Shown here: one piece after another, positions 50,021 through 64,000 of the stretch | How positions within the stretch are numbered: position 1 is the first letter of the stretch | Layout of the letters: each line of letters begins with the position of its first letter | NCBI RefSeq assembly: GCF_900109455.1 | Contig: NZ_FOAG01000001.1 | Location: 62,001-126,000 of the forward strand | Reading direction: 5' to 3' | Source of the DNA: Roseovarius azorensis | GTDB lineage: Bacteria; Pseudomonadota; Alphaproteobacteria; Rhodobacterales; Rhodobacteraceae | DNA length: 64,000 nucleotides | Translations under genes and position numbers: made by a program | Notes under the pieces: generated by a model | Told to the model about the DNA's origin: nothing | Databases searched by the model: none | What the model saw: only the letters and a program-made list of their open reading frames with translations

Positions 50021-50419
50021 CTAGCGCGGGGTGTCGCCAGCCTCTGCCGCCGCTTCGATCCGTTGGCGTTCTGCATCGCTCTCGTAGCTGGCCCATGGCC
50101 GCTCCGTGCCGGTGGGTGGCAGGTCAGAGGGTTTGTGGTTGAGATGTAGATGCGTCTTGGCGATGAAATGCCCGGTGATGGGCGCGGTCAGAAACAGGAA
50201 CAGCGTGATCATCAACTCGTGAAACGAGAGTTGCCCGACCACGAAGTAGAAATAAAGCATCGAGGCGATGAGCGCGCCGCCGACGCCAAGCGTTGTCGCC
50301 TTGGTTGGCGCATGCAGCCGCATCATCGGATCGGGCAGCTTGATCATCCCGAATGAGCCGACAAGCCCGAAAATGCCACTGATCACCAGCGAAACCGAAA
50401 TGAGAATCTCCACGAGCAT
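50021..50419 (-). CDS. mrpG: Mrp Na+/H+ antiporter subunit G
   Basis: This 132-residue subunit has three membrane helices (ISVSLVISGIFGLVGSFGMI, GALIASMLYFYF, ITLFLFLTAPITGHF) and the family motif KLPDPMMRLHAPTKATTLG. The cytoplasmic C-tail is extended by about 40 residues. It is the last gene of the leftward mrp operon AB-C-D-E-F-G. Confidence 0.94.
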   Translation of the reverse strand: MLVEILISVSLVISGIFGLVGSFGMIKLPDPMMRLHAPTKATTLGVGGALIASMLYFYFVVGQLSFHELMITLFLFLTAPITGHFIAKTHLHLNHKPSDLPPTGTERPWASYESDAERQRIEAAAEAGDTPR

Positions 50420-50430
50420 GGTCTGCCTCC

Positions 50431-50700
50431 CTATTCGATGATGTCGCCGCGCAGCAGAAAGCGCGTGTAGGATACGGTCGAGATAAAGCCGGTCATGGCG
50501 ATGATCATCGAAACCTCGAAGTAGATCGTCGTTCCCTTGAGAATACCAAAGAGCGCCAGCAGCGCGATGGCATTGACCACCATGGTGTCGAGCGCCAGAA
50601 TGCGGTCGCCGGGGCCGGGGGACTGGACGATCCGGTAGATGTTCATCAGAAGCGCCAGACCGAAACAGGAGAAGGCGAAGAAGAGCGCGTATCCGATCAT
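50431..50700 (-). CDS. mrpF: Mrp antiporter subunit F
   Basis: This 89-residue protein has three helices and the conserved GPGDRILALDTMVVNAIALLAL. It overlaps mrpE by 4 bp. MrpF is essential for complex assembly in characterised Mrp systems. Confidence 0.94.
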   Translation of the reverse strand: MIGYALFFAFSCFGLALLMNIYRIVQSPGPGDRILALDTMVVNAIALLALFGILKGTTIYFEVSMIIAMTGFISTVSYTRFLLRGDIIE

Positions 50701-51188
50701 TCGAAAATCTCCTTCAACCGGCGTTCATAGCGCGCCTTGATCTGATCGCGGACCGCGTCCGGGTCGGGTGCATCGAGGCAATGCACCAACAGGCTGCGCC
50801 CGTCCGCCGAAACGTCGCTGGATATCGTTCCAGGCGTCATCGTGATCGTGCCCGCCAGCACGGTGATTGCCTCGGGAGTGCGCAGATCAAGGGGGATGGA
50901 GATCCAGGCCGGTCTGGTGTTGGCGTTGGTCTTGAACAGGATGACAAAGGCCACCTGCACATTGGCAACGCAGATATCCCACAACGCCACAAGCACATAT
51001 TCCACAATACGCGGCCAGCTGCGCAGGTGTGGGCGATTGGGCCAATAGGGTGAGGTGATGACCGGGATGATCAGGGCCAGGACCGTTCCCAGCAGCAGGT
51101 TGCCGAGGGTCAGTTTGTTGACCAGCATCTGCCAGACCACGATCAGGGTCAGGGTCAGAAAGGGATGGGGCAGAATCTTGCGCAACAT
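50697..51188 (-). CDS. mrpE: Mrp antiporter subunit E
   Basis: This 163-residue subunit has the N-terminal helices LTLTLIVVWQMLVNKLTLGNLLLG and a cytoplasmic domain with PAWISIPLDLRTPEAITVLAGTITMTPGTIS, the MrpE signature. It lies 12 bp downstream of mrpD and overlaps mrpF. Confidence 0.94.
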   Translation of the reverse strand: MLRKILPHPFLTLTLIVVWQMLVNKLTLGNLLLGTVLALIIPVITSPYWPNRPHLRSWPRIVEYVLVALWDICVANVQVAFVILFKTNANTRPAWISIPLDLRTPEAITVLAGTITMTPGTISSDVSADGRSLLVHCLDAPDPDAVRDQIKARYERRLKEIFE

Positions 51189-51200
51189 TCTCGATCTCCC

Positions 51201-52730
51201 TCAGCGTTGCCGAAGCACGGTGCTGATATAGTTCGCGGGATCGTGCAATTGGTCCGCCGTGGCCTCGATATAGCCCATGGCGGACCCTGCGAATACCGAA
51301 AGCGCGACGAGGCTCGCCAGCATCGCAAAGCAAGCCACCACTGGCAGAGTGGGTTGCGGTGGGGCGGTGTGTGTCGGTTCCGTCTCGTCGGGGGCAGGCT
51401 CTGGTGTCTCTGTCTTCCAGAAGATCACGCTGCCCGCCTGTGCAAAGCCCAGCATGGCCACCAGCGAGGTGATCAGGATCACCGACCAGACAAGCCAGAC
51501 CTCGGACATGTCGCGGACCGCATCAAGGATCAGCAGTTTGCCGATGAACCCCGATAGCGGAGGCATGCCCGCCGTAGCGATCGCGGCGCCGAAAAAGAGC
51601 GCGGTAATGAGGCCGTGCTGCGCCAGTTGCGGGCCGGGGCGCAGCGCGCCCGCAATTTCGCCGCGCTGTTCGCGCACCAGATCGACCACGATAAACAGGA
51701 GCGCACCCGCCAGCGTCGAATGCACCAAGTAATAGATCGCAGCCGATGTGGTGGCGACCGTAAAGCCCGAGAGTGCAATCAGCAACGTGCCCATCGAGGC
51801 AATGGCGGCAAAGGCCGCGAGCCGCCCCAGGCGTTTCGCCCCGAGAATGCCGATCATCCCCACCGCCAGCGTGAGCAGCGCGCCATAGAGCAGGATCTGG
51901 TCAATTAGATTGGCGGTTGTTGCAAGATCAGGGCCAAAGACCAGCGTATACATGCGCAGGATCGCATAGGCCCCAACCTTGGTCATGATGGCAAAAAGGG
52001 CGGCGACCGGCGCCGGAGCCTCGGCATAGGTTTCGGGCAGCCAGAAATGCAGGGGCAAGAGTGCGGCCTTGATGGCAAAGACCAGAAAGAGCAGCATCGC
52101 CCCCACGCGCAACAGCCCGCTGTCCTCTGGTGGAACCTCTGCGGCGCGCTGCGCAAGATCTGCCATGTTGAGCGTGCCGGTTACCGCATAGAGCGTGCCG
52201 AGGGCAAAGAGAAACAGCGTAGATCCAAGCAGATTGTAGATCACATATTGAACGCCCGCCCGGAACCTGCGTCGCCCGCCTGCATGGATCATCAGGCCGT
52301 AGGACGCGATAAGCAGCACCTCGAAAAAGACGAAGAGGTTGAACGCATCACCGGTCAGGAAAGCCCCGAAAATTCCCATCAGCTGGAACTGAAAGAGCGC
52401 GTGAAAACTGTTACCGCGCTGATCCCAGCCGGTGCCAACGGCATAAAGCAGGATGATGATCGCCAGCACGGCCGTCAGCAGCACCATCAGCGCAGACAAC
52501 CGGTCCAGCACCAGTACGATGCCGAATGGCGCGGGCCAGTTGCCCAGTTCATAGACCTCGATCGCGCCGGTTGCGGCATGGGTCATGAGGCTGATCGCGA
52601 TTGCCAGAACCGCGCCTGAGCCCGCCAGCGAGAACACGCGCTGCAGCGCCGGGTGATGGCGCATCGACAGGGTCAGGATCGCCGCCAGAACGGCGGGCAG
52701 GACGACCGGGGCAATGATCCAGTGACTCAT
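51201..52730 (-). CDS. mrpD: Mrp antiporter subunit D
   Basis: This 509-residue polytopic subunit is homologous to complex I NuoN/M, with about 14 helices. The proton-channel segment FAIKAALLPLHFWLPETYAEAPAPVAALFAIMTKVGAYA contains the key Lys and Pro residues, and Glu is present in LFVFFEVLLIASYG. An extra Pro/Glu/Thr-rich cytoplasmic insert lies near residues 430-455 (ETPEPAPDETEPTHT). It overlaps mrpC by 4 bp. Confidence 0.95.
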   Translation of the reverse strand: MSHWIIAPVVLPAVLAAILTLSMRHHPALQRVFSLAGSGAVLAIAISLMTHAATGAIEVYELGNWPAPFGIVLVLDRLSALMVLLTAVLAIIILLYAVGTGWDQRGNSFHALFQFQLMGIFGAFLTGDAFNLFVFFEVLLIASYGLMIHAGGRRRFRAGVQYVIYNLLGSTLFLFALGTLYAVTGTLNMADLAQRAAEVPPEDSGLLRVGAMLLFLVFAIKAALLPLHFWLPETYAEAPAPVAALFAIMTKVGAYAILRMYTLVFGPDLATTANLIDQILLYGALLTLAVGMIGILGAKRLGRLAAFAAIASMGTLLIALSGFTVATTSAAIYYLVHSTLAGALLFIVVDLVREQRGEIAGALRPGPQLAQHGLITALFFGAAIATAGMPPLSGFIGKLLILDAVRDMSEVWLVWSVILITSLVAMLGFAQAGSVIFWKTETPEPAPDETEPTHTAPPQPTLPVVACFAMLASLVALSVFAGSAMGYIEATADQLHDPANYISTVLRQR

Positions 52731-53083
52731 GCCTCGTTCTCCTGCTCGTCTGGCGGTGCCTTGGGGCCGATATTGACGCTGTCGTTGCGTGATGACAGGT
52801 AAGAGCCAAGCGCGAGGATCACCACCACCGCTGTCATCCCGAAGGAAATCACGATAGCCGTCAGCACCAGAGCCTGCGGTAGCGGGTCGGTGTAGATCTC
52901 CACCCCCTTGCGCAGGACCGGGGGCATGTTGATAGCCAGCCGTCCGCTGGCAAAGAGAAACAGGTTCACCGCATAGGTCAGCAGCGAAATCCCGATGATC
53001 ACGGGAAAGCTGCGCAACCGCAGCACCAGATAGAGCCCGGCGGCTGTCAAAAGGCCGATTGCGCTTGCCGTCAGCAGTTCCAC
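52727..53083 (-). CDS. mrpC: Mrp antiporter subunit C
   Basis: This 118-residue NuoK-like subunit has three helices (ASAIGLLTAAGLYLVL, FPVIIGISLLTYAVNLFLFASG, ALVLTAIVISFGMTAVVVILAL) and the PLPQALVLTAIVI motif. It starts 1-2 bp after the mrpAB stop and overlaps mrpD. Confidence 0.95.
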   Translation of the reverse strand: MELLTASAIGLLTAAGLYLVLRLRSFPVIIGISLLTYAVNLFLFASGRLAINMPPVLRKGVEIYTDPLPQALVLTAIVISFGMTAVVVILALGSYLSSRNDSVNIGPKAPPDEQENEA

Positions 53084-53084
53084 G

Positions 53085-55964
53085 TCACTTGCCCCCCTCG
53101 TCCTGATTCTCCGCAGTCACACGGGCCGGGTTGATATCCATCGGGAAAACGTTGACCGTCTCGCCCGTGCGTCGCGCCATGTTCGACAGGCTGTTGAGCG
53201 CCAGCATCACGGCACCGACCACGGTCAGGAACACACCAATGTCAAAGGCAATCGCCGTGGCCCATTCGAATTCCTCGATCGGGGGGAAATGCAGATAGCC
53301 GTAATCCGATGTCAGGAATGGTCGATCCGCCAGCCAGGCACCGATGCCGGTCACAGAGGCGACCAGAACACCGACGCCGATGGTCGCATGATATGTCACC
53401 CGCTGCCGCGCCTCGGCCCAGGCAAATCCCGAAGCCATGTATTGCATGAGGAACGCGATCGCCACGATAAGCCCGGCGATGAAACCGCCGCCGGGTTCAT
53501 TGTGACCGCGCAAGAAGATATAGGCCCCGACCATCAGCGCGATGGGCATCATCATGCGTGTGGCCACCACCATCATCAGCGGGTGACGGTCGCCTGCTTC
53601 GGGGCGGGCATTACGGTCCCAATTGGCCAGCCAGCGACCGCCCGATCCCTTGAGGACCGTTTCGGTCAGCGCATAGATCACCAGCGCGGCGATCCCCAGC
53701 ACGATGATTTCGCCATAGGTGTCAAAGCCCCGGAAATCCACGAGGATCACGTTGACCACATTGGTGCCGCCGCCGCCCTTGTAGGAATTGGCGAGGTGAT
53801 AGGCGGAAATGCTTTCAAAGGTGAAATCGCGGATCAGGATGGCGTAGGTCAACCCGGTGACAGCGACGCCACCTGTGACCGCAATCACCGCATCGCGCAT
53901 CCGGCGCGCCGGGCTGCTTTCGGCGGGCGTCGTGCGCGGCAGGAAGTTCAGCGCGAGCAGAAGCAGGATGATTGTCACGACCTCGACCGAGATCTGCGTC
54001 AGCGCAAGGTCAGGCGCCGAGAAATAGACAAAGCCGAGCGATACCATGAGACCGACGATCCCCATCAGCACCAACGCGAGAAATCTGTTGCGGTGAAAGG
54101 CTACCAGGCTGATCGTGGCCAGCACCAGCAAGAGCCAGCCAATTGCGGGCAGGGCGGTTACGGGCAGCGCTTCGCGGGTTGGAGGCAGGGCGCTGCCGCC
54201 AGACCAAGCCAGCCAGCCGGCCACCAACACAAACACCGATAAAACCGCGGCATTGCGCGTCAGGGCGCCATTATGGACCCCGTCGGTCAGGGCGGCGCTC
54301 GCCCGGGTTGCCGCGTCGGCGACGGCGTCAAACATCACCTTGGCCTCGGGGCGCGGCGTGGCCAGCCAGAACCGCATCAGGGGCGCGTGCAGCGCCAGCA
54401 GGATTGCGCCGCCCAGCAATGCGGCACCCGACATGTAAAGCGCCGGGGTCAGCCCGTGCCAGATCTTGAGGTGAAAATCGGGCAGCCTGCCCCCCGTCAC
54501 CGCCCCAGCAGTGACCTTGACCAGCGGTTCGGCCAGGAACGGGGCGATGCCGATCACCACCACAAGTACCACGAGAAACGCCGGGGCCGCCCACATGCCG
54601 AAACCGGGATCATGCGGGTGCGCGGGATAGTCGTCGCGTACCGGGCCGAGGAACACGTGGACGATATAGCGCAACGAATAGGCGACCGAAAAAAGCGCGC
54701 CCAGCGCGGCCAGCGCGGGCACCAGCCAGGGATTGCCCCACCAGACCGTATGAGACGCCTCTTCCAGCATCATTTCCTTGGACAGGAACCCGTTGAGAGG
54801 AATGACGCCCGCCATCGACAGGGCCGCAATGGTGGCGATCCCGAACGTGACGGGCATCAGCCGGCGCAGCCCCCCCAGGCGCTTGATATCGCGGCTGTGC
54901 GCCTCGTGATCGACGATGCCTGCGGTCATGAAGAGCGCGGCCTTGAACGTGGCGTGGTTGATGATGTGAAACACTGCCGCCACCGCCGCCATCTTGGTGC
55001 CAAAGCCGAGAAGCATGGTGATGAGACCCAGGTGGCTAACCGTGGAAAAGGCCAGCAGCGCCTTGAGGTCATCCTTGAAGAGCGCGATTTTCGCACCGAT
55101 GACCATGGTGATCAGCCCCGTGGTCGCGACGATATAGAACCATTCCGGCGTGCCCGACAGGACCGGCCACATCCGCGCCATCAGGAACAGTCCCGCCTTT
55201 ACCATCGTGGCCGAGTGAAGATAGGCCGACACGGGCGTCGGGGCCGCCATCGCATGTGGCAGCCAGAAATGGAACGGGAACTGCGCCGATTTGGTAAAGC
55301 ATCCCGCCAGGATCAGCAGTAGCGCGGGCAGATACATCGGGCTGGCCTGAATTGCGTCCTTCTGCGTCAGGATCACGTTCAGGTCATAGCTGCCTGCAAT
55401 CTGACCCAGGATCAGCATGCCCGCGATCATCGCAAGCCCCCCCATGCCGGTGACGGTCAGCGCCATGCGCGCGCCCTGCCGCCCTTCGGGCAGGTGTTTC
55501 CAATACCCGATCAGCAGAAAGGACGATAGCGAGGTCAGTTCCCAGAAGATCAGCAAAAGCAGGATGTTGTCGGACAGGACGATCCCCACCATCGCACCCT
55601 GAAAGAGCAGCAGGTAAGCATAGAACTGCCCCATCGGATCCTCGCGCGAGAGATAGAAGCGCGCATAGAGAATGATCAGCAAACCGATACCCAGGATCAG
55701 CCCGGCAAAAAGCAGGCCCAGTCCGTCGAGCATGAAATTGACATTGAGACCGAGACCGGGCAGCCAGTCGAGTCTGAACAGCAGCACTTCGCCGCGCATG
55801 ACTGCGGGTGCGCAGATCATCAGAAGGACCAATGCGAGGATCGTGGGGGCGGCGGTGAAAGCCGTGCAGGTGTTGCGCCCCGCCTGAATCATCAGTCCCG
55901 GCAGGAGCGCGCCGAGAAATGGTAGCGCCGCGATGATCGGCAAAAATCCTCCGGCGGTGTCCAT
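53085..55964 (-). CDS. mrpA: fused Mrp antiporter subunit A/B
   Basis: This 959-residue protein combines NuoL-like MrpA (about residues 1-780) with MrpB (about 800-950), the fusion that defines group 2 Mrp/Pha systems. Channel motif is FTKSAQFPFHFWLPHAMAAPTPVSAYLHSATMVKAG, with LFWELTSLSSFLLIGYW for the Glu/Trp region. The B part shows GAYIFLRGHNEPGGGFIAGLIVAIAFLMQYMASG. It imports H+ in exchange for Na+, giving sodium and alkaline tolerance and supplying the Na+ gradient used by the TRAP system here. First gene of the operon. Confidence 0.95.
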   Translation of the reverse strand: MDTAGGFLPIIAALPFLGALLPGLMIQAGRNTCTAFTAAPTILALVLLMICAPAVMRGEVLLFRLDWLPGLGLNVNFMLDGLGLLFAGLILGIGLLIILYARFYLSREDPMGQFYAYLLLFQGAMVGIVLSDNILLLLIFWELTSLSSFLLIGYWKHLPEGRQGARMALTVTGMGGLAMIAGMLILGQIAGSYDLNVILTQKDAIQASPMYLPALLLILAGCFTKSAQFPFHFWLPHAMAAPTPVSAYLHSATMVKAGLFLMARMWPVLSGTPEWFYIVATTGLITMVIGAKIALFKDDLKALLAFSTVSHLGLITMLLGFGTKMAAVAAVFHIINHATFKAALFMTAGIVDHEAHSRDIKRLGGLRRLMPVTFGIATIAALSMAGVIPLNGFLSKEMMLEEASHTVWWGNPWLVPALAALGALFSVAYSLRYIVHVFLGPVRDDYPAHPHDPGFGMWAAPAFLVVLVVVIGIAPFLAEPLVKVTAGAVTGGRLPDFHLKIWHGLTPALYMSGAALLGGAILLALHAPLMRFWLATPRPEAKVMFDAVADAATRASAALTDGVHNGALTRNAAVLSVFVLVAGWLAWSGGSALPPTREALPVTALPAIGWLLLVLATISLVAFHRNRFLALVLMGIVGLMVSLGFVYFSAPDLALTQISVEVVTIILLLLALNFLPRTTPAESSPARRMRDAVIAVTGGVAVTGLTYAILIRDFTFESISAYHLANSYKGGGGTNVVNVILVDFRGFDTYGEIIVLGIAALVIYALTETVLKGSGGRWLANWDRNARPEAGDRHPLMMVVATRMMMPIALMVGAYIFLRGHNEPGGGFIAGLIVAIAFLMQYMASGFAWAEARQRVTYHATIGVGVLVASVTGIGAWLADRPFLTSDYGYLHFPPIEEFEWATAIAFDIGVFLTVVGAVMLALNSLSNMARRTGETVNVFPMDINPARVTAENQDEGGK

Positions 55965-56235: not shown

Positions 56236-57579
56236 TCAGTTGCGCAGATATGCCTCCATCGTGTCGTCAAGCGCATCTTTCCAGGGCGTATGATGTACGG
56301 GGGCCATCGTGCCGGTGATGACCGATTTGTAGGAATTGTCGCGAAAGCCCATGATGTCCTTGATCTTGTGGTATTTCCACTCAAAGAAGGCCTCGCAGGC
56401 TCCGGCGACGTCGAAACTGGGATAATCGGTTTCGTCGATCAGTTCCTGAACGTAATCCCCCTGATACTGGATCGCGTATTTCGCATCCTCGCCCGCATCC
56501 TCGCGGTCCTGACGTTCTTTCACGTCGGCCAGCATTGTTTCGCGGTCGGGAATCGCGATCTTGCCCATGATCGCATCGCGAACCCACCACGCCTGCGCGT
56601 CGAACATGTTGAAGGTAAACCACTGATCCTGCATCCCGAGGTAAAAGAGCCTGGGATTGTTGACCCACACGACACCTTTGTAGAGATCGCTGGTGGCCAG
56701 ACGGTTGGTGGTTTTGAGGCGAAGGTCATCCGGGAGGAAGTTGAAGAAATGCTTGTAGCCGGTGCACAGGATGATTGCATCGACCTCGCGACTCGATCCA
56801 TCCTTGAAATAGGCGGTCTTGCCCTCCACGCGCACCAATGCGGGAACCTCTTGCCAGTTGTCGGGCCAGGCAAAGCCCATCGGTGCGTTGCGATAGGCAA
56901 CGGTGACGGATTTGCAGCCATACTTCCAGCATTGGGAACCAATATCCTCTGCCGAATAGGACGAGCCGAGGATCAGGATGTCCTTGTCCTTGAACTCGCG
57001 CGCGTCGCGGAAATCATGCGCATGCAGGACGCGACCGTTGAAGGTATCGAAGCCTTCGTAGAAGGGAACGTTCGGAGTCGAGAAATGGCCCGAAGCAACG
57101 ATTACGTGGTCGAATTGCTCGGTATAGGTGCGATCCTTTTCATGGTCGTGGATGGTCACGCTGAAAAGGCGGCTCTTTTCGTCATACTCGACCCAGCGCA
57201 CCACCGAGTTGAAGCGGATCCAGTCACGCACCCCGGCCTTGAGTACGCGGCCTTCGATATAGTCGAAGAGCACGGCGCGCGGCGGGTAGGACGCGATCTG
57301 CTTGCCAAAATGTTCCTCGAACGAGTAATCGGCAAATTCGAGACCCTCCTTGGGGCCGTTAGACCACAAATAGCGGTACATCGAGCAATGTACCGGCTCG
57401 CCGTTCTCATCCAGCCCTGTGCGCCATGTGTAATTCCAAAGGCCACCCCAGTTTGCCTGTTTTTCGAAGCAGACGATATCAGGTATGGCCTCGCCCTTCT
57501 GGGCGGCGGACTGGAATGCCCGCAATTGCGCAAGGCCCGAAGGGCCGGCCCCGATGATGGCTATCCGTTTCCTGGTCAT
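56236..57579 (-). CDS. tmm: trimethylamine monooxygenase (flavin-containing)
   Basis: This 447-residue class B flavin monooxygenase oxidises trimethylamine to its N-oxide with NADPH and O2. FAD motif GAGPSG is at 10-15, the FMO signature [13 protein letters not shown] in the middle, NADPH motif [13 protein letters not shown], and C-terminal [17 protein letters not shown]. The sequence follows bacterial Tmm closely ([36 protein letters not shown]). GAGGGAG sets the ATG at 57579. Roseobacters usually carry tdm next to tmm; here it is absent within the window. A TTGACA -35 box and inverted repeats lie upstream. Confidence 0.93.
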
Positions 57580-57600
57580 TGTAAACTCCCTCGTTGACTG

Positions 57601-57621
57601 AACCAGATGTAGCATCTGGTT
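57601..57621. promoter_or_regulatory. 21-bp palindrome just upstream of tmm
   Basis: Arms AACCAGATG and CATCTGGTT are perfect complements separated by TAG. The site ends 22 bp before the tmm start codon, in the 5' leader or near the transcription start, a typical place for repressor binding. Confidence 0.6.
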
Positions 57622-57625
57622 CCTT

Positions 57626-57661
57626 ATTGGTCTGGTCCAGATAGTCATTTGGCAGACCAAT
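57626..57661. promoter_or_regulatory. 36-bp inverted repeat overlapping the tmm promoter
   Basis: Arms ATTGGTCTG and CAGACCAAT are perfect complements separated by 18 bp. On the minus strand the outer edge abuts a perfect TTGACA (57663-57668), so the repeat sits between -35 and the start site of tmm. An inner CTGGTCCA (57632-57639) recurs in the repeat at 59993-60028, which has the same overall length. Confidence 0.6.
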
Positions 57662-57662
57662 C

Positions 57663-57668
57663 TGTCAA
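57663..57668 (-). promoter_or_regulatory. tmm -35 promoter element
   Basis: Read on the minus strand this is TTGACA, the sigma70 consensus, 84 bp from the tmm start. The -10 is less clear (ACTATC or TATCTG at 17-19 bp spacing). Confidence 0.45.
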
Positions 57669-57755
57669 CCAATTTTCATAACGTGAAACTAATTTTCTGC
57701 ATGCCCGGTTGGATTCGCTCTGCTATTGCCGAAAATTGCTGCTACATCTGGTGGC

Positions 57756-59054
57756 ATGCACAATTCGAGTTTTGCCCATAAGCTTGCGGTCACCAGCATC
57801 CTGCCACGGATGCGTGTGGGCATGGTCAAGCCAATCAATATCGGCTTTCTTGCGCCGTTGAGCGGGCCGGTGCAGTCTTGGGGGCTGCCGGGGCTGAATG
57901 GCTGCCGAATCTGGGAGGATTGGTTGAACCGCTCGGGCGGGTTGCTCATCCAGGGTCGTCGCTATCCAGTCTGCATTCACGAATACGACTGCGGCTATGA
58001 TGGCGCGCGGGCGGTGGCAGGGGCCGAGCATCTGGTGCGGACCCACGGCGTTGCCTTGATGATGATGCTGGGCGGCGACACGTTCACGCCGGTGCGTGAC
58101 TATCTGACCGCGCACAAGGTTCTGACCTCGACCCTGTTGCCAAGCGATCTGTCGCCAGACACGCCCTATCTGATCGCACCAAGCGAGTTGCACCCCATCT
58201 ACAACGTGACGGGCGTCGACTGGTTGGCACGCAATCGGCCGGACCTTCGCAAGGTGGCGATGTGCAGCCAGACTGATGCGCTTGGCACACCGTCGCTGGC
58301 CACCTACCGCGCGGCGTTCAACGCGACGGGATTCGAGGTGGTCAAGGAAATCCGTTATGACCCCGATGTGACGGATGCGGCATCATTGGTGCAGCCGATG
58401 CTGGATGCCGGGCCGGATCTGCTGTGCTGGTGCACGAGTTATGCGCCGATGGTGCATGCCATGACCGAATATGCCCATGCACAAGGCTATACTGGCGCGA
58501 TCCTGTCCTGCACGATGGACAATTACGATCGCCTCGTGGCGCGCACCTCGGTCGCGTTCATGGAGGGGGCCACTTTTCAGTTTCCGGATTTCGACGATCC
58601 CAAGCTGCGTCGCAAGGCGTTCTTTTTCAATCAGCCACATGTGTTTTTTGCCGAATACAATCGCCGCTTTCCCGACAGCTGGAGCGCGGTAAGCTGGGAG
58701 TATGCGGCGATCCTCGATATCTGGCATGCAGCGGTGGAGAAGGCGGGAAACGTCAATACCTTGTCTGTACTGGCGGCGATGAAACAGATCGGGGAGGTCA
58801 CGCATGCCTTTGGTGCGGCGCGTTGGTGGGGTGAGGAAATGTTTGGCATCGCAAACGCGCTGGTGGGTGACTGGCCGGTGGTCACCATCCAGAACGGCAA
58901 GGCGCGGATCGTCGAGTTTGGCTCTATCCCGGACTGGCTCTCCCGCCACGAGGCGTTGTTGAGGGCTGAAATGTCCGCGCTCGAGCAATTATGGCATCAG
59001 CGCGCCGCTGCCGGATCGGGTCTGTCGCTGAACGCGCGGTCGGTGCCTGTCTAG
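57756..59054 (+). CDS. cytoplasmic-looking homologue of an amide/urea-type ABC binding protein
   Basis: This 432-residue protein is about half identical by eye to the exported binding protein at 60165 across its full length (IGFLAPLSGPV, LGGDTF, STLLPSDLSPDTPYLIAP, HPIYNVTGV, FQFPDFDDPKLR, SWEYA, IANALVGDWPVV). It lacks any signal peptide: the first 28 residues are polar, without a hydrophobic core. It therefore resembles AmiC, a cytoplasmic sensor derived from a binding protein. Start uncertain (57756, 57810 or 57822). It is divergent from tmm and convergent (4 bp overlap) with a GntR regulator. It may sense the importer's ligand. Confidence 0.8.
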   Translation: MHNSSFAHKLAVTSILPRMRVGMVKPINIGFLAPLSGPVQSWGLPGLNGCRIWEDWLNRSGGLLIQGRRYPVCIHEYDCGYDGARAVAGAEHLVRTHGVALMMMLGGDTFTPVRDYLTAHKVLTSTLLPSDLSPDTPYLIAPSELHPIYNVTGVDWLARNRPDLRKVAMCSQTDALGTPSLATYRAAFNATGFEVVKEIRYDPDVTDAASLVQPMLDAGPDLLCWCTSYAPMVHAMTEYAHAQGYTGAILSCTMDNYDRLVARTSVAFMEGATFQFPDFDDPKLRRKAFFFNQPHVFFAEYNRRFPDSWSAVSWEYAAILDIWHAAVEKAGNVNTLSVLAAMKQIGEVTHAFGAARWWGEEMFGIANALVGDWPVVTIQNGKARIVEFGSIPDWLSRHEALLRAEMSALEQLWHQRAAAGSGLSLNARSVPV

Positions 59055-59770
59055 CCGTCCTGGAGAAGTAGCTTCTGTTCCTCGACCAGATGCAGTTTGA
59101 TGAATTCGACCGCCGCCTCCACGTCACGCGCGGCGATCGCATTGAAGAGTGTGTTGTAACGCTGTTGGTAATCCTGGATGCGCTTTGGGGTCAGGTGGCG
59201 ACGCATCAGCGGAGCCCGAAAGCTCTGCTGGCAGGCGTCGATGACCAGATCATAGCAGGAGGCGAGCAGAGGGTTCCGGGTGCCCTGTGCAATCTTGCGG
59301 TAAAGCTCTTCTTCGTATCTGACAAAGTCCGATATTTCGGTACGCACGCTTTCAATGTGAGTGATGGTCTTGCTCAGATCCTCGAGATCGCGCGGGGTCA
59401 TGTTGATCACCGCCAGCCGCACCATTTCGGGTTCGAGGATACCGCGCATCACGAGGTGGTCAAGCGGGCTGGTGCGTTCGGCGACGGTGCTGTCCGTACC
59501 ATTACGATCTGGGGCGGAACGGTAGGTGACGAAACTGCCACTGCCGGCCCGGCGACGGATGATCTCTCGATTCTCCAGTACGTCGAGCGCTTCGCGCACA
59601 GTATTGCGCGACACGCCGAGCTCTGACGCGAGGGTACGCTCCGAGGGCAGGCGGGTATCGGCGGGATACTCCTCGGATCGGATGCGGGCAAACAGTGCGT
59701 CGATCACCACTTGGACCGTCGCGCCGACGGATTGACCGGACAAAAGCTGATTGGTGAGGGTGTCGTTCAT
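59051..59770 (-). CDS. GntR family (FadR/FCD type) transcriptional regulator
   Basis: This 239-residue regulator has an N-terminal wHTH (ADTRLPSERTLASELGVSRNTVREALDVLENREIIRRRAGSGSFV) and a C-terminal FCD domain (about 85-230) of the type that binds a carboxylate/metal effector. It is divergent from the ABC importer and convergent with the cytoplasmic binding-protein homologue. TTGGT-containing inverted repeats upstream of tmm and of the importer are its likely targets, though this is inferred. No strong ribosome site precedes the start. Confidence 0.9.
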   Translation of the reverse strand: MNDTLTNQLLSGQSVGATVQVVIDALFARIRSEEYPADTRLPSERTLASELGVSRNTVREALDVLENREIIRRRAGSGSFVTYRSAPDRNGTDSTVAERTSPLDHLVMRGILEPEMVRLAVINMTPRDLEDLSKTITHIESVRTEISDFVRYEEELYRKIAQGTRNPLLASCYDLVIDACQQSFRAPLMRRHLTPKRIQDYQQRYNTLFNAIAARDVEAAVEFIKLHLVEEQKLLLQDG

Positions 59771-60164
59771 TCAGGGTGCCGTTCATGCAAAGTGGGTAGA
59801 ATGTTTATACGCAGTGACGGACGCAGGCGCAATTTTCCTGATAGTGACCCGGTTCGGTATCCCGCTTTCATGGACTCAGGCATGGTGTTTCCGAATTGGT
59901 ATGGAACCGGTCTGATCTGTCGGATCTTTGGGCGTTCTGCTAAGCATCTGATAAAATTTGATTTTCCGACGTGGAGGGAAGGTTTTCGGGACTTTGGTTG
60001 GAAAACTGGTCCAATATTAACAACCAAAATAAAGAAATTTTCTTTGCGGGAAACACTGAATCGGTTAGCGTTCTCTTAGAGTCACCTTTTCCGGCCGAAA
60101 TTGGCATGAAACTGGTTTTTGCAAAGACCGTCGCGAAACAGGCGGGCCAACACGGGAGACGACA
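59771..60164. promoter_or_regulatory. 394-bp regulatory gap between gntR and the ABC importer
   Basis: I see no supported gene here; short open frames lack ribosome sites. The base composition is AT-richer than flanks. Candidate sites are TTGGGC and TAAAAT 18 bp apart (59928-59957) as a promoter for the importer, an imperfect ATTGGTATG..ACCGGTCTG cluster (59895-59914), and the inverted repeat listed separately. A long leader of over 100 bases may precede the binding-protein gene. Confidence 0.45.
59993..60028. promoter_or_regulatory. 36-bp inverted repeat upstream of the ABC importer
   Basis: Arms TTTGGTTG and CAACCAAA are perfect complements with a 20-bp spacer containing CTGGTCCA (60006-60013). 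Length, TTGGT outer arms and inner 8-mer match the tmm upstream repeat at 57626-57661, so both may bind the adjacent GntR protein. Confidence 0.55.
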
Positions 60165-61442
60165 ATGATTTCCAGATTTACGCGCAGGACATTCCTCAAA
60201 TCCACCGCCGTGACCGCGGTCAGCGCCGGATTGCCTCGGTTCGCGGCGGCGCAGGGCAACACCATCAGGATCGGTTTTCTCGCGCCGCTGACCGGCCCGG
60301 TCGCAGCATGGGGCAAACCCGGCCTCGATGGTTGCATGATCTGGGCAGAGCGGATAAATGCGGCTGGCGGCATAAAGCTTGCCGATGGCAGCTACCAGGT
60401 CGAATTCGTGTCCTATGACAATGAATACGATCCGGCCAAGGCACGCACCGGGGCGACCAAGCTCATCCGCGAGGATGGCGCAAGTTTCATAATGATGCTG
60501 GGCGGTGATACTTGGCCAGGCGTGCAGCCGGTTGCGGACAGGACGGGGATGCTGTTCTCGACCCTTCTGCCGTCGGATCTATCGCCCGACACGACGACGC
60601 TGATCGCACCCGCCGAGGTGCATCCGATCTACAATGTCACCGGCGTCGAATGGCTGGCCGAAAACCGGCCTGAACTGCAGACTGCCGTAATCTGCGCGCA
60701 GGACGATGCCCTCGGCCTGCCGTCGATCGCGACCTATCTTGCCGCGTTCGAGGCAGCAGGTATCGAGATGCAGGACGACCCGCTGCTCTTTGACCCGGCG
60801 ACAACCGATTTTGCACCAGTTGTCACGCGCCTGATTTCGAAAAGCCCCGACATCGTGTGTCTGGACACCTGCTATTCGGATTACGTGCACCCGATCTGCG
60901 AGCAACTGTTCCAGCAAGGCTACAAGGGCCAGATCATTTCCTGCACTGCGGATTTCTATGACCAGATCATCGCCAAGACTTCTAGAGAATTCATGGAAGG
61001 CTTTGTATTCCAGTTCCCGGATTTCGACGACCCGGCGTTGAATGCAGATCACATAAACTTTGTCGATCCGAACGGGTTTTATGCTGAATACAACAAGCGG
61101 CATCCGGGGCAGTGGGGCGCGGTCAGCTGGGAATACGCGTCGATCATGGATCTGTGGAAAGCCGCCGCCGAAAAGGCCGGCTCGGCCGATCCCGATGCGG
61201 TGGCCGCAGCAATGAAGGAAGGCGGCAAGGGAGAGCACGCCTTTGGCACGGCAGACTGGTGGGGTACCGAACTCTTTGGCATCGACAACGCACTGGTTGG
61301 CGACTGGCCGGTTGTCGCGATCGAGGACGGCAAGGCGACGATCAAGGAATTCAGATCAATCCCGGCATGGTATGCCAAACATGGCGATTTGTTGATCAAG
61401 CACATGACGGCCTACGATCAGATGTGGAACCAGCGCGGTTGA
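60165..61442 (+). CDS. ABC transporter substrate-binding protein (amide/urea/branched-chain type)
   Basis: This 425-residue periplasmic binding protein is exported by Tat (MISRFTRRTFLKSTAVTAVSAGLPRFAAAQ, twin-Arg TRRTFLK). The type I binding fold shows IRIGFLAPLTGPVAAWG, FIMMLGGDTWPG, HPIYNVTGVEWL and FQFPDFDDPAL. It is related to UrtA/FmdD/AmiC proteins that bind urea or short amides rather than to true LivJ. GGGAG precedes the ATG. It begins the operon with two permeases and an ATPase. The ligand may be a small nitrogen compound linked to tmm, but is unknown. Confidence 0.88.
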   Translation: MISRFTRRTFLKSTAVTAVSAGLPRFAAAQGNTIRIGFLAPLTGPVAAWGKPGLDGCMIWAERINAAGGIKLADGSYQVEFVSYDNEYDPAKARTGATKLIREDGASFIMMLGGDTWPGVQPVADRTGMLFSTLLPSDLSPDTTTLIAPAEVHPIYNVTGVEWLAENRPELQTAVICAQDDALGLPSIATYLAAFEAAGIEMQDDPLLFDPATTDFAPVVTRLISKSPDIVCLDTCYSDYVHPICEQLFQQGYKGQIISCTADFYDQIIAKTSREFMEGFVFQFPDFDDPALNADHINFVDPNGFYAEYNKRHPGQWGAVSWEYASIMDLWKAAAEKAGSADPDAVAAAMKEGGKGEHAFGTADWWGTELFGIDNALVGDWPVVAIEDGKATIKEFRSIPAWYAKHGDLLIKHMTAYDQMWNQRG

Positions 61443-61483: not shown

Positions 61484-62353
61484 ATGCTGGATCTTCTGGC
61501 GCAAACCAGCCTCAATGCCGTGTATGCAGCGAGTTACATTTCCCTGATCGCCGTTGGCCTCGTGCTGATTTTCGGCGTGATGGGGGTGATAAACTTTGCC
61601 CATGGCGAGTTGTTCATGCTCGGGGCCTATGCGGTTGTCGCGCTTTATGCCGACATGCAGCTGCCTTTTCTGATGGCCGTGGCGGCGGGACTCTTGTTCG
61701 TGGGCCTGCTTGGCCTAGTCATGGAGCGTACGCTCTTTCGCCCGCTCAAGGATAATCCCCTGGGCGGGCTGGTCGCCTCGATCGGCCTTTTGATGATCCT
61801 TCAGGCGCTAGCGGTGCTGGGGTTTGGTGTGCGCATGGAGCATGTGCCGCCCGTGACGCAGGAGGTGATCGCCTTTTCGGACAAGGTGCGCCTGCCGCTT
61901 GCTCGGCTCTATGTGATTGTCGCGGCAGTCCTGCTGCTCACTGGCCTGTGGTATTTCCTCAAACGCACGCGTTTCGGCTGGGCGCTGCGCGCCTCGGCTC
62001 AGGATCCCGAGGCGGCTGCGCTTCAGGGTATTTCGATCACTCAGACCGCCCGCATCGCCATGTTCATCGGGGCGGCGCTGGCCGGGGTCGCGGGCGCGCT
62101 CACTGCACCGCTGGTATCGGTCAATCCGCATATGGGTCACTCGGTGATCGTGACCGCCTTTATCGTGATCATCGTGGGTGGCGTCGGTTCGCTCGAAGGG
62201 GCGGTAATTGCCTCGGTGGTCTATGCGTTTGTCCACACGTTTGTGACCACTCTTTATGACGGGGTGATCGCCGATATCGTTGGCTTGTCGCTGATGCTGC
62301 TCGTCCTGATTGTCAGGCCCACCGGCCTTTTCGGGAGTGCGGACCGTGCCTAG
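61484..62353 (+). CDS. LivH-type ABC transporter permease
   Basis: This 289-residue branched-chain-family permease has eight or so membrane helices, the N-terminal SLIAVGLVLIFGVMGVINFAHGELFMLGAY signature and the cytoplasmic loop ALRASAQDPEAAALQGISI (EAA-like). It partners with the LivM-type permease that follows, which starts inside its last codons. Confidence 0.93.
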   Translation: MLDLLAQTSLNAVYAASYISLIAVGLVLIFGVMGVINFAHGELFMLGAYAVVALYADMQLPFLMAVAAGLLFVGLLGLVMERTLFRPLKDNPLGGLVASIGLLMILQALAVLGFGVRMEHVPPVTQEVIAFSDKVRLPLARLYVIVAAVLLLTGLWYFLKRTRFGWALRASAQDPEAAALQGISITQTARIAMFIGAALAGVAGALTAPLVSVNPHMGHSVIVTAFIVIIVGGVGSLEGAVIASVVYAFVHTFVTTLYDGVIADIVGLSLMLLVLIVRPTGLFGSADRA

Positions 62354-63323
62354 AATCCTCTTCTTCGCGCTTGGCCTGATCGGTCTCGTTGCCTTGCCGC
62401 ACGCTCTCAGCTTTTCGCAGCAGGAAATCCTTGTGTTTCTGGTGATCAACGTGCTTCTGGTCGCCTCTTATCGCCTGCTCACGCTGACCGGCGAATGGTC
62501 TCTGGGGCATGTGGTGATCATGGGCGTCGGGGCCTATGCTTCGGCGCTTTTCAGCAAGAACCTAGGCATTTACGTGCCATTTGCGATGCTTCTGGGCGGC
62601 ATGACATCGGCGCTTCTTGCCGTGCTGCTCAGTTTTCCGCTGTTTCGGATGAAGGGATTCTATTTCCTGATTGGCAGTTTCGCGGCGGGTGAGATCATCC
62701 GCCTGCTCTGGAAACGGTTTCGCGATCCGTTCGGTGGTGCCAAGGGGATTAAAGGAATCGAGCCGATGCCGGATTTCAGCATCGGAGTCTACGAGTTCGA
62801 TTTTTTCGAACCGATCAGTTACTATTACATGTCCGGCGCGGTAGTGGTGTTCTGCCTGTGGATCCTGTGGCGGATCGAGCGAAGTCCGGTCGGCCTGACG
62901 TTTCACGCGGTACACTGGCAGGACAAACTGGCCGAGGCATCGGGGGTCAATCTGCGCGCTTACCGCACGCTGGCCTTTTCCATCGCCAGCGGTTTTGCGG
63001 GATTGAGCGGCGCGCTGCTGGCGCATTATGTAGGCACAATCAACCCAAACAGTTTCGATGTCGAGGTCATGGTCTTTGTTCTGACATGGGCAATCGTCGG
63101 CGGCACTGCGACGTTCTACGGTCCTATTCTGGGTTGTGTCGTGCTTACCATCCTGAACGAGATCGTGCTGCGCGAACTTGGCTTTGAACAGATGCGCCCG
63201 CTGATCTATGGCGCGATCATGATCCTGTCGATCCTGTTCATGCCGAAGGGTTTGGAAAGTATTGTTCAGAGACTGACCCGCCGCACGCCTGTTGCGGCCC
63301 CACGCGAAAAGGTGGCTGAATGA
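62346..63323 (+). CDS. LivM-type ABC transporter permease
   Basis: This 325-residue permease has about nine helices with LLTLTGEWSLGHVVIMGVGAYASALFSKNLG and the loop LTFHAVHWQDKLAEASGVNLRAYRTLAFSIASGFAGLSGALLAHY. The start is a GTG overlapping the LivH stop by 8 bp, with GGGAG upstream; a longer open frame starts inside livH. It overlaps the ATPase gene by 4 bp. Confidence 0.92.
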   Translation: MPRILFFALGLIGLVALPHALSFSQQEILVFLVINVLLVASYRLLTLTGEWSLGHVVIMGVGAYASALFSKNLGIYVPFAMLLGGMTSALLAVLLSFPLFRMKGFYFLIGSFAAGEIIRLLWKRFRDPFGGAKGIKGIEPMPDFSIGVYEFDFFEPISYYYMSGAVVVFCLWILWRIERSPVGLTFHAVHWQDKLAEASGVNLRAYRTLAFSIASGFAGLSGALLAHYVGTINPNSFDVEVMVFVLTWAIVGGTATFYGPILGCVVLTILNEIVLRELGFEQMRPLIYGAIMILSILFMPKGLESIVQRLTRRTPVAAPREKVAE

Positions 63324-64000
63324 CCAAGTTTCTGGAAATCAGAGGCCTGACCATGCGCTTTGGCGGGCTGTTGGCGGTGGACAATCTGAGCTTTACGGTC
63401 GAGCACGGCCAGATCCACGGATTGATTGGGCCGAATGGTGCGGGCAAGACGACGACGTTCAACATGATCTCGGGATTCTACAAACCGACCAGCGGCAAGG
63501 TGCTGTTGCGCGGCGAGGATATTTCCGGTCTCAAGACGCATGAGGTGGCGCGGCGCGGTGTGGTGCGGACCTTTCAGCATTCAACGCTCTTCGCCGAGTT
63601 GACGGTGCTGGAAAACGCCCTCGTGGGCACGCATATGCCGTTTCGACCCAATATATTTGCGGCGATCATCGGTTGGGACAAGGAAGATCGGATCGGTGCC
63701 GAAGCTCGGGCGCGCGAGGCGCTGGAGTTCTTTGGCCTTGAGCATCTTGCGCAGGAACGCGCCGGAGACCTCTCGCATGGCCATCAGCGCGCCCTCGGGA
63801 TGGCGGTGGCCTATGCGTCGCATCCCGATGTGATCCTGCTCGACGAGCCCTTTACCGGCATGAACCCCGAGGAAACCCGGCGAATGATGGGGCTGATGCG
63901 GGCCCTGCGCGACAACGGCATTACCCTTCTTCTGGTCGAGCACGACATGCAGGCGATCATGGGGTTGTGCGACACCATCACCTGCATGAGCTTTGGCAAG
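63320..64000 (+). CDS. LivG-type ABC transporter ATPase (3' truncated)
   Basis: 227 residues are visible before the window ends; family length is about 250. Walker A is GPNGAGKTT near residue 38, Walker B is VILLDEPF, and the H-loop is LVEHDM. The signature reads LSHGHQR rather than the usual LSYGQQR/LSGGQQ. The ATG overlaps the LivM stop (ATGA). A LivF-type partner ATPase would be expected just beyond the edge. Confidence 0.93.
   Translation, partial: MTKFLEIRGLTMRFGGLLAVDNLSFTVEHGQIHGLIGPNGAGKTTTFNMISGFYKPTSGKVLLRGEDISGLKTHEVARRGVVRTFQHSTLFAELTVLENALVGTHMPFRPNIFAAIIGWDKEDRIGAEARAREALEFFGLEHLAQERAGDLSHGHQRALGMAVAYASHPDVILLDEPFTGMNPEETRRMMGLMRALRDNGITLLLVEHDMQAIMGLCDTITCMSFGK

What the first reader, a model, noticed from the sequence alone, without database searches (positions are those of the whole stretch)
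57601..60028. Matching 36-bp inverted repeats suggest one regulon for tmm, a cytoplasmic binding protein and an ABC importer
Seen directly: the tmm upstream repeat (57626-57661) and the importer upstream repeat (59993-60028) are both exactly 36 bp long, have TTGGT..ACCAA outer arms, and share the inner 8-mer CTGGTCCA. The first one overlaps the tmm promoter beside a perfect TTGACA. A GntR/FadR regulator lies between them. Inference: this regulator represses tmm and the importer together, tying an amide/urea-type ABC system to methylated amine oxidation. I am not aware of this unit being described.
Basis: partly seen in the sequence, partly recalled or inferred. Interest (0 to 1): 0.72.

Follow-up and report, generated by a model that had tools for sequence, protein, structure and literature searches.

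The report
Shared switch for trimethylamine use genes
In a marine-type bacterium, the gene that oxidises trimethylamine, a nearby uptake system and a likely internal sensor protein appear to share one DNA switch (repeated TTGGT words read by a GntR-type regulator); the regulator and its control of the oxidase were already known, while the uptake system and the sensor partner look new.

Summary
The GntR/FCD gene is, by domains and position, TmoR, a published repressor of tmm (PMC13390433), so that part is not new. The operator is a phased array of TTGGT half-sites, not two isolated 36-bp repeats: 127 in 36 tmm promoters with TmoR (shuffles 21.9) against 11 (shuffles 11.5) in 28 from genomes without TmoR. 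Importer promoters of relatives carry the same half-sites (117 against 33.3 in 25 regions); in this window alone the importer signal is weak. The importer co-occurs with tmm in 10 of 11 family genomes (67 of 295 overall). The protein between tmm and TmoR lacks the importer protein's twin-arginine leader in 43 of 43 full-length orthologs and accompanies TmoR in 19 of 19 genomes; TmoR has a degraded FCD metal site. Best model: TmoR represses tmm and a methylated-amine ABC importer, with the cytoplasmic binding protein as probable sensor. Binding at the importer, ligand and relay are untested.

The parts
56236..57582 (-). tmm, trimethylamine monooxygenase
   Evidence: NCBIfam NF058570 trimeth_mono 838.7 bits against cut-off 675
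57600..57622 (.). perfect palindrome GAACCAGATG-TAG-CATCTGGTTC in the tmm 5' region, near the place where several relatives carry TTGGTATGGACCAA-like sites
   Evidence: read; relatives
   Evidence: 7 YTGGT/ACCAR in 173 nt, 0 of 1000 shuffles reach it; register relative to TTGACA
57627..57640 (.). 14-bp dyad TTGGTCTGGTCCAG, matching the family operator TTGGTNNNNACCAA with 2 mismatches
   Evidence: sites with at most 1 mismatch in 29 of 36 tmm promoters with TmoR and 1 of 28 without; the window's own site, at 2 mismatches, is not among the 29
57663..57668 (-). -35 box TTGACA of the tmm promoter; the -10 (about 57640-57645, ACTATC on the minus strand) is inferred
   Evidence: TTGAC[AC] found in 28 of 36 tmm promoters
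57756..59054 (+). SBP1: type I binding protein without the twin-arginine leader, proposed cytoplasmic sensor
   Evidence: Peripla_BP_6; leader absent in 43 of 43 full-length orthologs of at least 65% identity; model mean pLDDT 86.4; AmiC among fold matches, ranks 41-48
59051..59770 (-). TmoR ortholog by domains and position, GntR/FCD repressor
   Evidence: PF00392 and PF07729; next to tmm with one gene between, as published; degraded FCD metal site
   Evidence: offsets from the core promoter within 1 nt of those in L081
60038..60069 (+). importer core promoter: TTTTCTT 60038-60044 and -10-like GGTTAGC 60063-60069
   Evidence: pattern found in 24 of 25 importer regions
60101..60116 (+). importer downstream direct repeat TTGGCATGAAACTGGT (11-bp period)
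   Evidence: counterpart TTGGCCCGAAATTGGT in L056; direct repeat or everted pair downstream in 20 of 24 regions (pattern chosen after seeing the sequences)
60165..61442 (+). SBP2, importer substrate-binding protein with twin-arginine leader
   Evidence: PF13458 and PF10518; RR in the first 30 residues of 77 of 82 orthologs
61484..62353 (+). importer permease 1 (LivH/UrtB class)
   Evidence: UrtB 199.3 bits, below cut-off 250.3
62346..63323 (+). importer permease 2 (LivM/UrtC class); start codon not certain
   Evidence: UrtC 95.5 bits, below cut-off 296.2
63320..64000 (+). importer ATPase 1 (LivG class), runs beyond the window; the second ATPase follows at L004 8578-9285

Best explanation
The GntR/FCD protein is TmoR. 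It binds TTGGT half-sites arranged in phase over the tmm promoter (from inside the -35/-10 spacer to downstream of the start) and blocks transcription; related half-sites around the start of the importer operon put that ABC importer in the same regulon. The importer most likely takes up a methylated amine that feeds Tmm or its pathway (TMA, TMAO or DMA). The binding protein between tmm and TmoR, a paralogue of the importer's own binding protein without its leader, most likely stays in the cytoplasm and reports the ligand to TmoR, as AmiC does for AmiR. Shown by computation: the array, its conservation, its restriction to genomes with TmoR at tmm, the co-occurrences, the missing leader. Published for R. 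pomeroyi only: TmoR represses tmm. Inferred: TmoR binding here and at the importer, the substrate, the relay.
For: Half-sites in 36 tmm promoters with TmoR: 127 against 21.9 in shuffles; in 28 tmm promoters without TmoR: 11 against 11.5. TmoR-importer intergenic regions: 117 against 33.3 in 25. Upstream 400 nt of six other genes in the same loci: z -1.4 to 1.8 (4 to 6 regions each, except 50 for PermB, whose upstream is mostly SBP2 coding). Core promoter in 24 of 25 importer regions, half-site pairs downstream in 20 of 24. Recurrent half-site positions relative to TTGACA. Importer with tmm in 10 of 11 family genomes, 67 of 295 overall; TmoR with tmm 19 of 19; TmoR with SBP1 19 of 19 (relatedness of genomes not corrected for). 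Five genomes have importer and tmm on different contigs with a TmoR-like gene on the tmm contig; half-sites at the importer: L074 8 (0 of 1000 shuffles), L097 5 (1 of 1000), L089 6. Published: tmoR deletion raises tmm about 4.4-fold and the DNA-binding domain binds the tmm promoter.
Against: In this window the importer region alone is weak (3 exact half-sites, 120 of 1000 shuffles reach it; relaxed 5, 34 of 1000). The 14-bp dyad of tmm promoters is nearly absent at importers (3 of 25, shuffles 0.7), so the binding mode would have to differ. Importers with no tmm, SBP1 or GntR upstream in the fetched locus are also enriched (43 against 13.2 in 18 regions), so another regulator may read TTGGT there. 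Seven of 11 importer genomes in the family sample lack TmoR, and tmm promoters of six of them show little (4 against 1.9, dyad 0 of 6). Among unlinked importers, L065 has 1 half-site (413 of 1000) and L091 2 (115 of 1000). The published study found TmoR specific for tmm among the pathway genes tested.
Confidence: 0.68

Rival explanations
1. TmoR controls tmm (and perhaps SBP1) only; the importer's TTGGT sites belong to another GntR-type regulator, and adjacency in some Roseobacters is gene clustering without co-regulation.
For: Importers without tmm, SBP1 or GntR upstream in the fetched locus carry half-sites too; loci with tmm divergent from the importer carry direct repeats though no TmoR-level hit was found in the 7 such genomes checked (L100, L101, L114, L124, L125, L130, L133), and four such loci hold a GntR that keeps the metal residues; the 14-bp dyad is rare at importers; published work found TmoR specific for tmm among pathway genes tested.
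Against: L004, L038 and L081 importers show the 29-bp half-site spacing also seen at tmm promoters; L074 and L097 have strong arrays at importers on other contigs than tmm and TmoR.
Confidence: 0.25
2. SBP1 is an ordinary importer component, or a duplicate without a signalling role.
For: It is about 52-53% identical to SBP2; in print it, or the gene in its place, is listed as transporter or periplasmic protein; N-terminal hydrophobicity of SBP1 and SBP2 overlaps in a crude test; the best fold matches are exported binding proteins.
Against: No twin-arginine leader in 43 of 43, against 77 of 82 for SBP2; a conserved SSFAHRLAV..LPR-like start; present in all 19 TmoR genomes, 15 of which lack the importer.
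Confidence: 0.3
3. The two 36-bp repeats are chance or independent hairpins.
For: Only 2 of 25 importer regions have the exact spacing; 6 such spacings exist in the genome.
Against: Exact spacing in 10 of 36 tmm promoters against a shuffle mean of 0.0; half-sites in register.
Confidence: 0.07

Closest known systems
TmoR-tmm of Ruegeria pomeroyi DSS-3 (PMC13390433)
   Same: GntR repressor gene next to tmm, usually separated by one gene of unknown function; action at the tmm promoter
   Different: No operator sequence in its main text (word search); importer not part of its scheme in the sections read; intervening gene unexplained
AmiC/AmiR amide sensor of Pseudomonas aeruginosa
   Same: Type I binding protein acting as cytoplasmic sensor beside its regulator (AmiC 1qnl, 1qo0, 1pea among Foldseek matches, ranks 41-48)
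   Different: AmiR is an RNA-binding antiterminator (recalled); here the partner would be a DNA-binding GntR protein
UrtABCDE / LivFGHM (HAAT) importers
   Same: Domain families, two permeases and two ATPases
   Different: Below the curated urea cut-offs for UrtA, B, C and D; linked to tmm
Known methylated-amine transporters TmoXVW (TMAO) and TmaT (TMA, BCCT)
   Same: Proposed substrate class
   Different: Other transporter families

Membership tests
TmoR (GntR/FCD repressor of tmm) | GntR DNA-binding and FCD effector domains | tested here: met
   PF00392 65.1 bits, PF07729 75.9 bits
TmoR (GntR/FCD repressor of tmm) | Located next to tmm, one gene between | tested here: met
   window gene order; published arrangement
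TmoR (GntR/FCD repressor of tmm) | Represses tmm by promoter binding | not testable with these tools
   published for R. pomeroyi; here only the operator's dependence on TmoR presence
TmoR (GntR/FCD repressor of tmm) | Sequence orthology to SPO1553 | not tested
   the R. pomeroyi sequence was not fetched by name
FCD ligand-binding regulators with metal site | Asp-His-His-His metal site (residue roles recalled) | tested here: not met
   48 TmoR sequences: E 48; Y 42, H 5, L 1; Y 43, F 5; H 43 of 48 (aligned to 2di3)
AmiC-type cytoplasmic sensor | Type I binding-protein fold | tested here: met
AmiC-type cytoplasmic sensor | No export signal | tested here: inconclusive
   no twin-arginine leader in 43 of 43 full-length orthologs; no Sec leader seen by eye; no predictor run and crude hydrophobicity overlaps with SBP2
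AmiC-type cytoplasmic sensor | Direct contact with a regulator | not testable with these tools
   only co-occurrence with TmoR, 19 of 19
Urea ABC importer (Urt) | Scores above NCBIfam cut-offs | tested here: not met
   UrtA 30.8/492.75, UrtB 199.3/250.3, UrtC 95.5/296.2, UrtD 181.2/304.1, the last on a protein cut by the window end
Trimethylamine monooxygenase (Tmm) | NCBIfam equivalog cut-off | tested here: met
   838.7 against 675 bits

The most novel reading that the evidence does not exclude
A two-protein amine sensor: a leaderless paralogue of an importer's binding protein senses methylated amines in the cytoplasm and relays the signal to a GntR/FCD repressor that has lost its own metal-dependent ligand site. 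The pair occurs with and without tmm, and controls both the oxidase and a new (HAAT-class) ABC importer of methylated amines.
Probability: 0.35. Interest if true: 0.78.

Novelty: new variant of a known kind. Interest (0 to 1): 0.58.

Why it matters
Methylated amines are an important nitrogen source for marine bacteria. In the sections I read, TmoR effectors are inferred from transcript levels in mutants and only the DNA-binding domain of TmoR was purified; the gene between tmm and tmoR is called of unknown function. A concrete operator, a sensor candidate and an importer candidate make these open points directly testable. If the relay is right, this would be a GntR regulator that has handed its ligand sensing to a separate binding protein.

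Tried and rejected
Isolated 36-bp repeats as the whole operator: rejected, since half-sites are found in 36 of 36 tmm promoters with TmoR but this spacing in 10. Shared CTGGTCCA as the key word: rejected, different offsets and 6 copies in the window. Urea importer: cut-offs not met. Generic intergenic enrichment: disfavoured by upstream controls, which are small (4 to 6 regions each; PermB 50 but mostly coding); the direct-repeat count was 1 in the SoxB and in the XRE control (z 3.6 and 2.7 on 6 and 5 regions). Scan of the own genome for TTGGTNNNNWCCAR: 24 distinct places, not informative. Ammonium transporter as regulon member: exact dyad upstream of amt in 2 of 13 loci with a hit (L037, L040) and none within one mismatch in the other 11, so not general. 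Pocket reading for the ligand was not done: no coordinates were available. The 2016 paper on tmoR is not held.

Limits and dropped rows. The half-site was settled after viewing tmm-SBP1 regions, so counts on those regions are not independent of its choice; the importer, class II and no-TmoR sets were counted afterwards. Of 37 TmoR-importer regions, L090, L096, L104 and L117 (GntR about 40% identical) were set aside and near-identical regions thinned, leaving 25; class II 18 to 12; importers without tmm, SBP1 or GntR upstream 20 to 18. SBP1: 44 extracted at 65% identity or more, one (L064) cut by a contig end. One search fetched 20 of the 26 other genomes with an SBP1 match. The no-TmoR control used 28 of 48 tmm genomes without TmoR; six more have the importer and were counted apart, G275 (L186; 0 half-sites) was left out because a related GntR lies in that genome, and 13 were not examined. 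Some of the 28 upstream stretches of 200 nt include coding sequence of the gene before. The 18 genomes were chosen from the loci without tmm upstream, not all of them.
Full report
What is there. The window lies in a 3.86-Mb genome; the nearest named importer loci come from Rhodobacteraceae records such as Sedimentitalea, Leisingera and Roseovarius. Gene order is tmm (minus), SBP1 (plus), a GntR/FCD gene (minus), then an importer operon SBP2-permease-permease-ATPase-ATPase (plus). Beyond the importer lie sarcosine-oxidase-like genes, an AraC-type gene, an XRE-cupin gene and further oxidoreductase genes (translations); that these are mgd, tmaR and dmm genes of the methylamine pathway is my reading of sequence and position, with no family search run on them.

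The observation. Both repeats are at the stated coordinates and are 36 bp long. TTGGT-N24-ACCAA occurs at 6 places in the genome, two of them 2.4 kb apart in the two promoter regions. The shared CTGGTCCA sits at different offsets.

The regulator is not new. The GntR protein is, by domains and position, TmoR, reported as a direct repressor of tmm in R. pomeroyi: deletion raises tmm about 4.4-fold, the DNA-binding domain binds the tmm promoter, and effectors were inferred as DMA (main) and TMAO (minor) from transcript levels in mutants (PMC13390433; I read the abstract, the first part of the text to Methods, the TmoR, distribution and discussion sections). It states that tmoR is usually separated from tmm by a gene of unknown function, and that TmoR is specific for tmm among the pathway genes tested. 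The words motif, palindrom, inverted repeat, footprint and operator do not occur in its main text. R. pomeroyi sequence was not compared here by name.

The operator. In 20 fetched relatives, tmm, SBP1 and GntR are adjacent in 15 and all three lie in the locus in 17; L050 ends at a contig end, L052 and L053 lack tmm in the locus and carry a GntR of 37-39% identity. Most tmm-SBP1 intergenic regions of these share TTGGTNNNNACCAA about 20 or 50 nt from tmm. In thinned sets, TTGGT/ACCAA counts are 44 against 9.7 in shuffles (15 regions, no importer nearby) and 83 against 11.9 (21 regions with importer). The key control: 28 family genomes with tmm but no TmoR show 11 against 11.5, and the 14-bp dyad (at most 1 mismatch) in 1 of 28, while 36 with TmoR show 127 against 21.9 and the dyad in 29 of 36. 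Half-sites recur at set positions relative to TTGACA on the tmm strand: YTGGT at +8 (10 promoters), ACCAR at +37 (20) and +46 (19), YTGGT at +60/61 (19), ACCAR at +69/70 (13), among 28 promoters of 36 with a TTGAC[AC] box. The array spans spacer, -10 and start, as expected for a repressor.

The importer. Across 25 TmoR-importer regions half-sites number 117 against 33.3; upstream regions of six other genes in the same loci are not enriched (z -1.4 to 1.8, small sets). A core promoter pattern is found in 24 of 25, and 20 of these 24 have a direct or everted half-site pair downstream of it (pattern chosen by eye, no shuffle control). In the window this is TTGGCATGAAACTGGT at 60101-60116, matched by TTGGCCCGAAATTGGT in L056. 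In the window alone the importer region is not significant for exact half-sites (120 of 1000 shuffles), so the claim for this genome leans on relatives.

Linkage of importer and tmm. Among 295 family genomes, 11 have the importer (E at most 1e-170) and 10 of these have tmm (67 of 295 overall; Fisher p 1.9e-6, relatedness not corrected); TmoR (E at most 1e-60) is in 19, all with tmm and all with SBP1 (E at most 1e-150). Of 63 named loci with at least 7.8 kb upstream, 39 have tmm upstream and 24 do not. Of 18 chosen genomes whose importer locus lacks tmm upstream, 15 have tmm in the genome. In 18 loci, several from records not named Rhodobacteraceae, tmm is directly divergent from the importer with no SBP1 or TmoR between; of 12 thinned regions 8 carry direct repeats TTGGT-N5/6-TTGGT (15 against 0.3). 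Which protein reads those is open: two of these loci hold a GntR about 40% identical to TmoR (L110, L128) and four a GntR that keeps the metal residues (L118, L124, L126, L133).

Unlinked cases. In five genomes (L065, L074, L089, L091, L097) importer and tmm are on different contigs, with a TmoR-like gene on the tmm contig; these are draft assemblies. Half-sites at the importer are 8 in L074 (0 of 1000 shuffles), 5 in L097 (1 of 1000), 6 in 400 nt in L089 (no single-locus shuffle), 2 in L091 (115 of 1000) and 1 in L065 (413 of 1000). So the unlinked evidence is mixed. In L091 and L097 SBP1 sits next to the importer, not to tmm.

SBP1 and TmoR. SBP1 has no twin-arginine leader in 43 of 43 full-length orthologs, against RR near the start of 77 of 82 SBP2 orthologs, and has a conserved SSFAHRLAV..LPR-like start. 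That it has no Sec leader is judged by eye; no predictor was run, and a crude hydrophobicity test overlaps (12-residue maxima, SBP1 0.52-1.30, SBP2 0.77-2.02). In the model (mean pLDDT 86.4) residues 1-23 have low confidence; the best fold matches are exported binding proteins, and AmiC appears at ranks 41-48. Related leaderless proteins sit beside GntR proteins 37-41% identical to TmoR: with importer and tmm in L128, with importer and without tmm in L117, L096, L104 and L090, with neither in L052; L096, L104 and L090 would need a TTG or GTG start. In 48 TmoR sequences three of the four residues aligned with the FCD metal site of 2di3 are changed (E 48; Y 42, H 5, L 1; Y 43, F 5; H kept in 43); the metal role is recalled. 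The GntR proteins beside the related leaderless proteins lack the three His (most keep the Asp), while four GntR proteins from other positions keep all four. This fits sensing by SBP1 instead, but no contact or ligand was tested.

Literature limits. Ten library searches were run. SPO1552 is listed in a table as part of a 'trimethylamine transporter' (PMC9723723, passage); a legend names an uncharacterized HAAT periplasmic binding protein in the neighbourhoods of fhs, with tmm and tmoR (PMC4744692, passage); and a substrate-binding protein, fadR and amt are marked as recurrent in the cluster (PMC7574528, passages). TmaT (PMC11708041, passages) and TmoXVW (PMC8918994, passages) are known transporters of other families. 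PMC5520151 was seen in passages only. I found no report of this importer with tmm or of a TTGGT operator in these searches; most subscription papers, including the 2016 tmoR paper, are not held.

Noticed in passing
window 57600-57622 and 57740-57752: A perfect palindrome in the tmm 5' region and an exact 13-bp inverted copy of part of it (ACCAGATGTAGCA) just upstream of the SBP1 start.
   Followed up: partly
L037 5903-5916 and L040 46-59: Perfect TTGGTNNNNACCAA about 175 nt upstream of a gene read as an ammonium transporter in two genomes without an adjacent importer (no family search on the gene).
   Followed up: partly
L096, L104, L117, L090, L128, L052: Leaderless binding proteins (three with a likely TTG or GTG start) beside a GntR protein 37-41% identical to TmoR; importer next to five of the six, tmm only in L128.
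   Followed up: partly
18 loci between L100 and L134 (class II): tmm divergent from the importer without TmoR between; direct repeats of TTGGT in 8 of 12 thinned regions; reader of these sites unknown.
   Followed up: partly
upstream of SBP1, window about 57742-57755 and relatives: TGCTA, a possible -10 element, lies in the last 30 nt of 11 of 36 tmm-SBP1 regions, suggesting a very short leader for SBP1.
   Followed up: no
L093 (Oceanobacillus sp. HTM 045): A record named Oceanobacillus carries the importer at 81% identity; its tmm has the same coordinates as in family genome G004, so the name looks wrong.
   Followed up: no
L111 9001-10870: SBP2 of a Marivita MAG is longer than the others (605-residue frame) and its match is split, as if extra sequence lay in it.
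   Followed up: no
window 50021-55964: Genes read by me as a multi-subunit Mrp-type antiporter (translations, no family search) lie directly downstream of tmm.
   Followed up: no
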